Source of the DNA: Corynespora cassiicola
Lineage: Eukaryota > Ascomycota > Dothideomycetes > Pleosporales > Corynesporascaceae
DNA: 64,000 nucleotides
Direction: 5' to 3'
Assembly (NCBI GenBank): GCA_022059125.1
Contig: JAEUWY010000016.1
Coordinates: 186,001-250,000, forward strand
How positions within the stretch are numbered: the first letter of the stretch is position 1; each line of letters begins with the position of its first letter. Positions 17,223 to 55,662 of the stretch are shown piece after piece. Under the pieces are notes generated by a model. That model searched no databases, had not been told where the DNA came from, and saw only the letters and a list, made by a program, of their open reading frames with translations. Both the position numbers and the translations under genes were made by a program.

Positions 17223-17522
17223 ATGGCTCCCATCGGCCAGGACCCGAACCAATGGACTCTGGAAGTCACCATGGGTCTGTCTAACGTCCTCGCCACCATC
17301 CTGGTCCCCTGTCTGAGCGGTGTCTGCCACCTCATCTGGCGCCGGTACGAGGCGACACTCGAGGATTCTCTGGGCGGGTCGTCGGATGGTACGGGTACCT
17401 CTTCTCCGCCATCGACCGCTCGTGATTCGCGCAAGGGGACGAAGCCTCGACGGTTCCGGAGGAGTGCTGGGGTTCGTGTTGTTGCTTTTCCTGTTCGGGG
17501 AGGGGGGTGTAGGAAGGGTTGA
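17223..17522 (+). CDS. Small single-span membrane protein, family member A (divergent)
   Basis: A 99-residue frame starting MAPIGQDPNQWTLEV. One hydrophobic helix spans about residues 19-40 (VLATILVPCLSGVCHLIW), followed by RRYE and a Ser/Gly-rich then Arg/Lys-rich tail (KPRRFRRSAGVRVVAF). The layout matches members B-G of this window: MAP start, Trp about 11 residues in, a Pro-Cys-Leu within the helix, a basic residue pair straight after it, and a basic tail. It lacks the W-[ST]-K-E spacing exactly (WTLE), so it is the most divergent copy. Splicing at GATG/GTACGG with a nearby acceptor breaks the basic tail, so the unspliced reading is preferred. Function unknown. Confidence 0.6.
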   Translation: MAPIGQDPNQWTLEVTMGLSNVLATILVPCLSGVCHLIWRRYEATLEDSLGGSSDGTGTSSPPSTARDSRKGTKPRRFRRSAGVRVVAFPVRGGGCRKG

Positions 17523-19734
17523 GTAGGGGAGGGGGGAGAGGCTGGTGTCTCAAGGGATATGTCTAGTCAACCGAGGCATAATCCGAGGGGACACACTCTC
17601 CGGCAAGCCCAAAAAAAGAGAAAAGGAAAAAAAAAGAGGGGGACTCATTCTTGATCGACTAGCTTCGATCCTGGGATGGGCTTGTCGATTCTGGCACTGA
17701 GCACTGCACGTCAAAGTATGATGCAGTGCAGTGTACGGATCCACAAGACTCGTCCCAGAGAGGTATAGGAAAAAGATCGGAAAGATCGGAAAGAAGAGGA
17801 AACCAAGTGCGTATCCGCACGGTCCTCGTGGGAGCTCGAGTCTACGGCTTAGTCCGAGTACTTGTTCCCTTCTTTTTTTTCCTGCCTCCACATCACGGCA
17901 ACACTCGTCCGCGCCATGATGTAGCGCCAAGTCAAGGACGTTTGCCGCTCTCGACCTTCAAACTCTTTTACCTTCTCCGAACCTCATATCCGAGAGCGTG
18001 GCCTCAATCGAGAGGAGGCCAAAACCGCCAGGATATCTCATCCGACTCCTCCGAACTCGTTTTACCCCACTCATATCTTATTGAATTTCTCCTTCTTATC
18101 CTCTTTATAATCCCTTATACCCATCACCAAAAGATCGATGAGATCGCATTATAGTAAGTTCCAAGGTTTGTATCAGGCTGACATGCGCGACAGTGAGATT
18201 ACGCCGCCGCACCCTCGTAAATGAGGATCCTATCGGTATTTCACAACCTATCCCAAACTTCACGATGAATGCATTAGAGCCATTATAATAATACATTCGC
18301 GCAACCCCATAGGGTAGTGAGTATTACCCATGCGTTACAAACACTGACTGCATAAATCACGTGTCAGGCAGTTCTCGAACGGTACCAACCTACCCAGGTA
18401 GATGAGTAAGTACCCAGGTATCACTCCCGGATCGCTGCCTCGAAAGTGAAAGTGCGATCACGGAGCATATTAATTCTATGGAAAATCCGACGCAACATTT
18501 TCCAACAGCATTTGCTGGGGTTAGAGTCAGCCTATCTATCTGCCGTGAAGCCAATCGGTCTTCACCGGTCCTTGGTCGCTTACATGTCCAGATTTGCACA
18601 CCAAGCTATACCCCGCATCCGGATTGGAAGCGATAAGTTGACATGAACTCGCACAAAATGGAACAAGACTAACCAGATTCCACCAGACCTTTCTAGAACA
18701 GAACTAATTTTTGCGCCCCTAACAGTTAGACGAGTGCAACAGCTACCATCAAGGTAGGTCAAGTCAGATGTAGCCGGAATCGGCAGGTAATGTTGAATGT
18801 CACGCTGAGAAGGAATTCGGACTTCGGCTCAATGGGGTGTTACAGAAAAGAGTCTGTTTCATAGCAACTAGTTTGAAAAAGAAATTGATAACGATGTAGC
18901 TCCTGTTCCAAAACCACATCTTGTGCTTTCTATACAGGTCCAGCTTCGTCTCAGCATCGCTATTTATCCATAAGGCTGTCAGCATCTACAGATAATGTGG
19001 TCTCATAGTTCTTAGGCCACCTGAAGATATCTTTACATCGCATTTTGTGGTATCTTGATTACAAAAGTATATCAGTCCAATATCAATAATGCAGCCTTCT
19101 CTGAAGTACAAAGGCGTCACTATAGAAGAGCGGGGACCAACAAGTAAAAGAAGAATACCCAATCATAACGTTCGATAGCCTTTTTAGAACGGAGAAGTGG
19201 CACGGAAGCATTGTTCCCGAAGACTTGGGTCGCGTTTTACCGTTGTCCGCTAGTTTCTGACGCTGCGCGAGAATCGGTCCTCCGGAACCTATGGGCCGTT
19301 GTGTACACACAAGGCTGCATACTGTCATACAATACAATGAATACTTGCCGATGATTGCAGGCTTTAACTAAGTAAACGAAAGAAACAAAAAAGACATGAG
19401 AATAAGGCTGTGTACGCATATATATGCATGCACGCATATGGTCGAACATCTCACCGACTGCCCCGCTTACTCTGCATGATCATCCATACTCGTTTCTACA
19501 TTAGATAACATAAGCTATCTAGATGATATAAATCCATCTCAATTTCCTCTATTATTGTTGTATGATACTCCCGATATTGTTTTCCAGCAAGTTTTATCAA
19601 GAATTTTCTCCTCACACATCCATGAAAAGTCACTTCTTCATAATAGCAGACGTACCTTCATCATAATCGCACGCTATATCATTAATAAAGCAACAAAATT
19701 GGCCAACATATCGCAAAAAATACCTATCTGTACT
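17523..19734. other. Intergenic, no supported gene
   Basis: AT-richer DNA with short scattered frames. A degenerate form of the tacccaggta motif seen elsewhere occurs near 18390-18420. No RNA gene was seen. Confidence 0.4.
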
Positions 19735-20203
19735 ATGGCGCCCATACCCCAAGAGTCAATCACCTCCGAATCTTGGACTAAGGAAGCTCTTTTTGGTCTT
19801 ATCGGATTTCTTATGCCTTGCCTGTGTCTGCTTATAAGGTTTATATACCGCAAGTATATGGAACATCGACCATCCATGCAGAGAACTACATATGGTAAAG
19901 AAGAGTCTCTCTTTTATCCTCATACGCATGCTCTAGATATCCGTGCATGTATCTGTTTTTTGAAAGCACAGAATATGCACGAAACGTCCTCGCTTTTGTG
20001 ATTTTCTCTATTCTTCAACTTATTTTTGTTCTTCTCTTGTATAGTACCAATACAAGGACCTTCTCTGACCCAATACAGCCCCTATTCAAGCACCTTCACA
20101 CACATCCACCACTGCTTCTATCTTGCCAACCGATTCAGCACTCGGGCGCAAAAGGCGTAACTCCAAAAGAAAACGCAATGCACCTGTTTTCATTATCCTC
20201 TGA
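19735..20203 (+). CDS. Small single-span membrane protein, family member B
   Basis: Two exons (19735-19894 and 20079-20203) with a 184-nt phase-1 intron (donor GTAAAG, acceptor AATACAG) give 94 residues. Exon 1 encodes MAPIPQESITSESWTKEALF, a hydrophobic helix (GLIGFLMPCLCLLIRFIY) and RKYMEHR. Exon 2 encodes a Ser/Thr/Pro linker, a strongly basic run (GRKRRNSKRKR) and the C-terminus NAPVFIIL. The intron choice is supported because exactly this frame yields the same terminal peptide as member D (NPVFIIL), on the other strand 18 kb away. The short acidic N-terminus, single helix and basic C-terminal side suggest an N-out/C-in or tail-inserted small membrane protein; topology is inferred. No known family is recognised. 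Confidence 0.75.
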
Positions 20204-54255: not shown

Positions 54256-55261
54256 GTTGAGCGATTGGAAGCTTTTGATTTTCCTATGAACGATGCGACC
54301 TGGTGATGGGGGAGACAAAAGAACGTGGTGGCCTAAATAAGTAGTGATGCTGCGCAACAGCAGGCCAGTGCTATTTAAGCGGTGGTAGCAAGCGCTTTAT
54401 GAGAATGGCATCCAAGAACATTGGCAAGCTTCACGAAACAAAAGCCAAGAGTCCGTTCATCAAATGCGGACTTGTATTGATGTTCGCCTTCTTATTAAAC
54501 CCGTCTAAGCTAAGGCACCAAAACTATAGTTTCAGGTAAAACATTGCCGCCCCCGCTGCCGCCATCGACATTAGCGCGTCGTACATGCGCGTGGACCGGG
54601 TAAGTCTGCCCAATGCCCAGAGAATAAATGAACAAAGACCACGAGATTTAATATGTGCCCGTGGCAATTCAGAGCAGAATTGGCCAGAAATAATCTACGG
54701 CCAGGTGGTTCCTCGGTGATCGGCATCCCTTTTTAGCCGGGATCTTGACAGCGGAGAAACCTGGTCGGCCTTTCCCACATGAGGTATAGCGGTTGACGTC
54801 AACGGCCGCTCGGCATCACCCTTAAAGTGAGCCTCAGCCTTGTCTCCTGTCCTTCCATCTGCCATTCTTCCACGCGAACACTAAGCTTGTAGCCATCGTT
54901 TCGCCTTCTCGGCCCCTTCTACAGTTGTTCGAGACCCTCCCGATCGGGAGATCACCGAAGCGGTGGCATCCCGTTTCGGTTCATAGGGGTTCGGCGGTGT
55001 TCTTTAGGGCGTTGGCAACAGTCTGCCGACATGGTTCCCTCCTGTATTTGAGTCAGTTCTCGTCCGCTTTGGAGTGTTCAATAATGCAGTGGGGCTCAAA
55101 TATTGGAAGCAATCCCTCAACATACCTATGGTCGACTCTCGCCGATATCGAGTCACGGTGAAGTCGGTTGACGGTCGAGTTCTTGCTGGGACCTTGCTGT
55201 ACCCAAGACCTCGCAACCTTGGCCCAAATCTCCAAGGGTACTTATAGAAAATGCCTCCCAT
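54256..55261. other. Intergenic upstream of the xylanase
   Basis: Promoter side of the xylanase gene; a tatttaag near 54370 lies about 110 bases before the start on the xylanase strand side. No gene seen. Confidence 0.45.
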
Positions 55262-55662
55262 TCAATCAGTTACATTGGGACGCCCTCTCCTACTGCGTAA
55301 GATTGTCGTATAGGTTCGTTGTTGGTTCAAGCGAGCTAGTTCCATCTCGACCCACCTATTTCCGCAAACACAACTCCTCACCCCACATTCGATATCTGGT
55401 GTTGTCAACTTTTTATGTTCTCATGCCCATCTACCCTTGGCCTTACCTGCGGATTTGATTCTTCTAGGCCATAATCGCAACCAAATGCCGCACAGCGTGG
55501 AGCCGAAACACCATTCCAATACCAATCCAACAACCATGATAAAAAGGCTCACAATAGCTATGAGCGCCTCTTTTGACCATGGTGAAGAAGAGGCATCTTT
55601 TGGAGTCAAACAAATTAGTAACAAAAACTCTCTACATAGGAAGGCCGCCCACCAGTTTTCAT
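55262..55662 (-). CDS. Small single-span membrane protein, family member G
   Basis: Model of three minus-strand exons (55662-55653, 55596-55447, 55395-55262), phase-1 introns of 56 and 51 nt, 97 residues. Exon 2 has no ATG in frame, so a 10-nt first exon (Met-Lys-Thr) is proposed; its donor (GTGGGC) is weak, and the true start may lie elsewhere or be lost. Exon 2: DASSSPWSKEALIAIVSLF, one helix (VSLFIMVVGLVLEWCF) and WLRLWPRRIKS. Exon 3: a Cys-containing stretch and a tail with NQQRTYTTILRSRRGRPN. WSKEA is identical to member E, and QQRTY pairs it with member F. It may be a pseudogene if no valid first exon exists. Confidence 0.55.

What the first reader, a model, noticed from the sequence alone, without database searches (positions are those of the whole stretch)
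17223..55662. Dispersed family of seven tiny single-span membrane proteins
Genes at 17223, 19735, 37370 (plus) and 38816, 48910, 50621, 55662 (minus) encode 78-124 residues. They share a short polar N-terminus, a W-[ST]-[KR]-E motif right before one hydrophobic helix, basic residues after the helix, a phase-1 intron at the same point (six of seven) and a basic tail. They occur only in the accessory parts, around HET and kinase genes, and are absent from the housekeeping island. I recognise no named family. A role in non-self recognition or membrane signalling is a guess from location.
Basis: partly seen in the sequence, partly recalled or inferred. Interest (0 to 1): 0.85.

Follow-up and report, generated by a model that had tools for sequence, protein, structure and literature searches.

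The report
Undescribed fungal small membrane protein family
Seven tiny genes in one stretch of a fungal genome really do belong to one unnamed family of single-span membrane proteins that also occurs in related fungi, but nothing found here shows what they do or ties them to the self/non-self recognition genes nearby.

Summary
All seven genes are one family: a profile built only from 21 outside homologues ranks them first to seventh among six-frame ORFs of the window plus 50 kb of flank. Models run 78-122 aa. Of the 21 hits, 7 carry names, all Dothideomycetes (6 Pleosporales, Zopfia unplaced). F differs at 4 of 122 positions from a Corynespora cassiicola protein, so the genome is probably that species or close kin. 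Corrections: A reads W-T-L-E, so the motif is in 6 of 7. Two kinds of tail exist: A-E basic, with a hydrophobic end in B, D and E; F and G share an extra 5' intron and a D-[ILV]-E-x-G...QQ-x-x-Y tail. Charges predict N-terminus outside, C-terminus in the cytosol. Own-genome searches found no other copy in 44 Mb. A general HET/kinase link is not supported: the paralogous HET-kinase-kinase locus on C5 and seven other HET stretches lack them. No Pfam model, solved structure or paper was found. Most likely they are small membrane-anchored adaptors or regulators; that step is inference.

The parts
17223..17522 (+). Copy A, 99 aa, no intron, W-T-L-E, reads past the place of the hydrophobic end; lowest-scoring copy with the outside-only profile
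19735..20203 (+). Copy B, 94 aa, subfamily 1; exons 19735-19894, 20079-20203; C-terminus PVFIIL
37370..37713 (+). Copy C, 97 aa, subfamily 1; exons 37370-37532, 37583-37713; lacks the hydrophobic C-end; unspliced frame also open
38354..38816 (-). Copy D, 101 aa, subfamily 1; exons 38645-38816, 38354-38487; C-terminus PVFIIL
48622..48910 (-). Copy E, 78 aa, subfamily 1; exons 48769-48910, 48622-48716; C-terminus KIVLFLQ
50147..50621 (-). Copy F, 122 aa, subfamily 2; exons 50591-50621, 50361-50534, 50147-50310; 118 of 122 residues identical to an annotated Corynespora cassiicola protein
55262..55662 (-). Copy G, 97 aa, subfamily 2; exons 55653-55662, 55447-55596, 55262-55395; weakly matched (E 0.008) by the Melanomma homologue P0020
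40107..47849 (.). Neighbouring HET(-) / kinase(-) / kinase(+) module; context, not part of the family

Best explanation
The seven genes are one locally clustered family of small single-pass membrane proteins, known so far from Dothideomycetes. Shown by sequence: a short, mostly acidic or neutral N-terminus, sometimes with an N-glycosylation sequon; one hydrophobic helix that starts at W-[ST]-[KR]-E; a basic tail encoded after a phase-1 intron; in subfamily 1 often a hydrophobic, strand-like C-terminus, in subfamily 2 a longer tail with D-[ILV]-E-x-G...QQ-x-x-Y. Inferred: they sit N-outside/C-inside in the plasma membrane or endomembranes, the conserved outer half of the helix pairs with a membrane partner, and the tail docks a cytosolic partner or inner-leaflet lipids, so that they work as small membrane-anchored adaptors or regulatory subunits. 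Subfamilies 1 and 2 would differ in the partner they bind.
For: Family reality. Helix: pLDDT 94-95 over residues 31-50 of P0007, tail without secondary structure at pLDDT 51-58; second, low-confidence helix 88-120 in P0022. Topology: net charge before W is zero or negative in 24 of 29 proteins, the 15 residues after the helix are net positive in 28 of 29 and the whole tail in 29 of 29; sequons before the helix in 11 of 29 (a few rows are near-duplicates). C-end: the last six residues hold at least 5 of VILFM in 6 of 9 subfamily-1 proteins whose full tail I judged readable by eye (B, D, E, P0003, P0007, P0011; P0001 has 4; A and C 0), shuffle frequency 0-0.003 for each of the six. Of 2348 ORFs only the second exons of B, D and E meet a basic-plus-hydrophobic-end criterion, which was written after seeing them. 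The QQ-x-x-Y tail is shared by F, G, P0016, P0020 and P0022.
Against: No partner, expression, localisation or phenotype is known. The invariance of WSKEALFGLL in outside hits is inflated, because candidates had to share exact five-residue words; the window copies vary more. A and C lack the hydrophobic end. 14 of 23 subfamily-1 proteins were not judged at the tail (predictions that stop early or probably read into the intron), and the nine were picked by eye. The tree of the short core has mostly low supports and does not recover the two subfamilies: P0016, P0020 and P0021 group with E, while F and G fall elsewhere; the split rests on the tails. P0022 is the same-species counterpart of F and adds no independent tail.
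Confidence: 0.42

Rival explanations
1. PMP1/PMP2-like proteolipids: the proteins bind and tune a plasma-membrane P-type ATPase or another pump through the helix, with the basic tail on inner-leaflet lipids.
For: Same general anatomy (recalled for PMP1/2); copy D gave a sub-threshold PMP1_2 match, E 0.029, 14.6 bits.
Against: Cut-off 22.3 not met; the other 6 window proteins and 22 homologues show no PMP1_2 match at E 1. I recall no W-[ST]-[KR]-E or VFIIL end in PMP1/2.
Confidence: 0.2
2. Components of a non-self recognition or cell-death system together with the neighbouring HET and kinase genes.
For: All seven genes lie within 15 kb of one of the window's two HET hits, and the surrounding 213 kb carries five HET hits; reviews describe clustering of fungal cell-death genes (PMC10197012, PMC12881547; passages only). 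Copies A-E returned no annotated counterpart from the Corynespora strain that has F, which could be presence/absence variation or missed annotation.
Against: At least 150 HET hits genome-wide but no copies found elsewhere; paralogous HET-kinase-kinase locus without them; F differs from its counterpart at 4 of 122 positions, none in the first 67, with no baseline to judge that by.
Confidence: 0.12
3. Membrane-active killer or self-poisoning micropeptides kept in a local cluster.
For: Small, hydrophobic and basic, locally multiplied.
Against: Tails are similar across species, which fits a kept interaction better; no paired immunity gene was looked for systematically.
Confidence: 0.06
4. Chance ORFs or non-coding sequence.
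For: Tiny genes; no transcripts available here.
Against: Profile and leave-one-out tests, controls, annotated 122-aa counterpart of F with the same spliced length.
Confidence: 0.02

Closest known systems
PMP1/PMP2 plasma-membrane ATPase proteolipids (Pfam PF08114)
   Same: One membrane span and a basic cytosolic tail (recalled)
   Different: Best score 14.6 bits against a cut-off of 22.3, in 1 of 7 copies; no W-[ST]-[KR]-E or hydrophobic C-end recalled
HET-S / HELLP membrane-targeting cell-death executors of fungi
   Same: Fungal, membrane-targeted, with a C-terminal hydrophobic or amyloid motif; genes often clustered (passages)
   Different: No HeLo/HELL family among Pfam matches at E 1; span always present by prediction; the end motif recurs only in one other, chance-like ORF of the stretch
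Hypothetical proteins BS50DRAFT_80244, K505DRAFT_338868, K505DRAFT_328580, K469DRAFT_2933, HBI65_017520
   Same: Members of the same family in other Dothideomycetes
   Different: Unnamed; no paper found under these five names in the held library

Membership tests
The family described here (W-[ST]-[KR]-E single-span proteins) | Profile match of the W..E-helix core | tested here: met
   7 of 7 with an HMM of outside members, E at most 0.0035
The family described here (W-[ST]-[KR]-E single-span proteins) | W-[ST]-[KR]-E | tested here: inconclusive
   6 of 7; A has W-T-L-E
The family described here (W-[ST]-[KR]-E single-span proteins) | Phase-1 intron after the helix | tested here: inconclusive
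   6 of 7 by model; A has none; introns of other species not seen
PMP1/PMP2 proteolipids | Score above the Pfam PF08114 cut-off | tested here: not met
   Best 14.6 bits against 22.3 in D; no match at E 1 in the other 6 copies or in 22 homologues
PMP1/PMP2 proteolipids | Physical association with the proton ATPase | not testable with these tools
   Needs pull-down
HET-S/HELLP executors | HeLo or HELL domain | tested here: not met
   No such family among matches at E 1 in 7 window proteins or 22 homologues
HET-S/HELLP executors | Amyloid motif shared with an adjacent NLR | tested here: inconclusive
   No NLR domain in the 20 ORFs scanned, of 66 ORFs of at least 110 aa kept by the overlap filter; end motif elsewhere only in one chance-like ORF
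Non-self recognition (het/vic) loci | Allelic polymorphism and incompatibility phenotype | not testable with these tools
   Only F could be compared with another isolate

The most novel reading that the evidence does not exclude
The cluster is a hitherto unknown membrane-anchored recognition or signalling locus of Dothideomycetes: several small N-out/C-in proteins with two kinds of tail present short variable outside peptides and pass a signal through sequence-specific helix pairing to C-terminal docking strands that recruit cytosolic kinases or HET proteins. The ends of 5 of the 9 tails judged readable fit a kinase-docking pattern recalled from ELM, against about 1 expected when the shuffle rates are added up.
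Probability: 0.08. Interest if true: 0.8.

Novelty: new variant of a known kind. Interest (0 to 1): 0.42.

Why it matters
Small single-span membrane proteins are easily missed by gene annotation: of the seven copies, only F returned an annotated Corynespora counterpart in the searches made. A verified family in several Dothideomycetes, with two kinds of tail, a juxtamembrane motif and a recurring C-end, gives a concrete set of genes to localise and delete and a profile for annotating others. The case also shows that lying beside HET genes in a HET-rich fungus is weak evidence of function.

Tried and rejected
A protein search with D alone found nothing; the profile of exon-1 peptides was needed. 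The third and last protein search returned 3 proteins, one of them new; fusions of the core to larger proteins were not searched for. The codon pattern W-x-x-E-A gave 16 genome hits against 11 for the reversed control pattern. Three are B, E and G; of the other 13, twelve have no hydrophobic stretch and one (C8:207757, W-S-R-E-A) is followed by a moderately hydrophobic stretch (1.80 against 2.35-2.81) but scores only E 14-18 with the profiles that list it, so it was rejected (one search had printed 10 of the 13). The pattern by design misses copies A, C, D and F. Weak hits on C1 (E 1.64 and 0.215) and C13 (E 0.067) were read: the C1 translations at the match do not show the core, and the C13 one is a different helix within a longer frame, profile E about 1.2. 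One other ORF near the second C1 hit scores E 0.06 with the subfamily-1 profile, the level of the reversed control, and was not pursued. In one search a loose scan flagged two hydrophobic stretches after W-[ST]-[KR]-Q in the flanks; neither has the E. Bacterial and archaeal contigs: none confirmed. No fold search was run, since a single helix has no telling fold. Kex2-type peptide precursors were considered from the KR sites and set aside because charges place the tail in the cytosol. Gene neighbourhoods in other species could not be read here.

Literature: seven searches (listings only) showed no paper on this family; passages of PMC10197012 and PMC12881547 were seen, no whole paper.

Full report
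What is there. The seven reported genes are members of one family. Exon-intron models were read from the DNA and checked by script: A 99, B 94, C 97, D 101, E 78, F 122 and G 97 residues. Six of seven have W-[ST]-[KR]-E before one hydrophobic helix; A has W-T-L-E. Six of seven have a phase-1 intron after the helix; A has none. All eight modelled introns are phase 1, and F and G share an extra early one.

More than chance. A profile of the seven exon-1 peptides (G's first residues mis-spliced there) found 21 proteins at E at most 1 among 5.8 billion, the best at 1.9e-11. Seven carry names: Parastagonospora nodorum, Paraphoma, a Phaeosphaeriaceae isolate, Lojkania, Melanomma (two) and Zopfia. 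All are Dothideomycetes; six of the seven are Pleosporales and Zopfia is unplaced within the class. The other 14 come without an organism. Reversing the test, an HMM of those 21 alone ranks the seven window copies first to seventh in the window plus 50 kb of flank (E 2.6e-16, 2.9e-16, 5.5e-11, 6.8e-10, 0.00054, 0.00079, 0.0035; next 0.58). Because the 21 were found with the seven, this is not fully independent. Leave-one-out inside the window recovers 7 of 7. One reversed and three shuffled controls reach 0.06 at best. The exact-word step of the protein search inflates the apparent invariance of WSKEALFGLL among outside hits.

Host. A second profile search returned a 122-residue protein of Corynespora cassiicola Philippines that differs from spliced F at positions 68, 70, 76 and 116 only, so the genome is probably that species or near kin; this rests on one protein. 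It also supports both introns of F. The species belongs to Pleosporales. Copies A-E returned no counterpart from that strain, through missed annotation or absence.

Two kinds of tail. Subfamily 1 (A-E and 18 of the 21 hits) has a basic tail. Of 23 such proteins I judged nine tails readable, by eye; 6 of the 9 end in a hydrophobic strand, P0001 nearly so, A and C not. Of 2348 ORFs in window and flanks only the second exons of B, D and E meet a criterion made after seeing them. Subfamily 2 (F, G, P0016, P0020, P0022; P0021 by its helix only) has a QQ-x-x-Y tail. The Melanomma protein P0020 matched G over most of its length, though weakly (E 0.008). The core tree does not separate the subfamilies, so the split rests on the tails.

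Anatomy. One helix is predicted with confidence (pLDDT 94-95 at its centre) and the tail of P0007 has no predicted structure; P0022 has a second, low-confidence helix in the tail. N-flank charge is zero or negative in 24 of 29, the tail positive in 29 of 29, which predicts outside N-terminus and cytosolic C-terminus. Sequons lie before the helix in 11 of 29.

Genome distribution. Own-genome searches with a mixed query, P0020, P0011, P0022, P0001, G and A found no further copy, nor did a codon pattern. They are exon-wise and seed-limited, so distant copies could be missed. All detected copies lie within about 38.4 kb of 44.35 Mb.

Neighbourhood. The window holds two HET hits, and all seven genes lie within 15 kb of one. 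It has a HET(-) kinase(-) kinase(+) module; the nearest relatives of its first kinase, 43% and 38% identical, form the same order beside a HET gene on C5. In 25 loci (197.5 kb: that 30 kb, a C6 kinase pair, the 50 kb of flank, seven other HET stretches and eight short HET loci) no family member was found; the best score is E 0.17. A HET hit falls in 12% of intervals of this size by the genomic rate and in 20% on this contig. A recognition role is therefore not supported, and not excluded.

Known families. Pfam gives no match above cut-off in the seven window proteins. Among 22 homologues the few matches at E at most 1 are each to a single member and to nine different families, the best at 0.0024. 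No solved structure matches convincingly (best E 0.044, RBM22). The nearest anatomical kind is the PMP1/PMP2 proteolipid, below cut-off in one copy. No paper was found.

Reading. I take these for small membrane-anchored adaptors or regulatory subunits. The family and its anatomy are shown, the topology is predicted, and partner binding by helix and tail is inference.

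Noticed in passing
window 40107-47849 and G000:C5:3053223-3059308: A HET(-) kinase(-) kinase(+) module occurs twice in the genome in the same order and strands; the window's first kinase is 43% and 38% identical to the two C5 kinases.
   Followed up: partly
window 4022-6572: A beta-eliminating lyase gene (PF01212) directly beside a tryptophan dimethylallyltransferase-like gene (PF11991), a possible small secondary-metabolite pair.
   Followed up: no
window 7684-9828: Polysaccharide deacetylase with three chitin-recognition stretches.
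   Followed up: no
window 24001-36000: Housekeeping island has GC 0.55-0.61 against 0.42-0.53 in the other 4-kb bins except 8-12 kb.
   Followed up: partly
window 39140-39250: Direct repeats of about 30 bases with CCCATTGG or similar boxes upstream of copy D, seen by eye.
   Followed up: no
window 37370-37744: Copy C stays open without splicing in another tail frame, so intron retention would give a different protein.
   Followed up: no
window 13055-15307: HET-domain protein whose middle looks strongly hydrophobic by eye, perhaps membrane-spanning.
   Followed up: no
window 60815-61943: DUF3500 gene on the minus strand.
   Followed up: no
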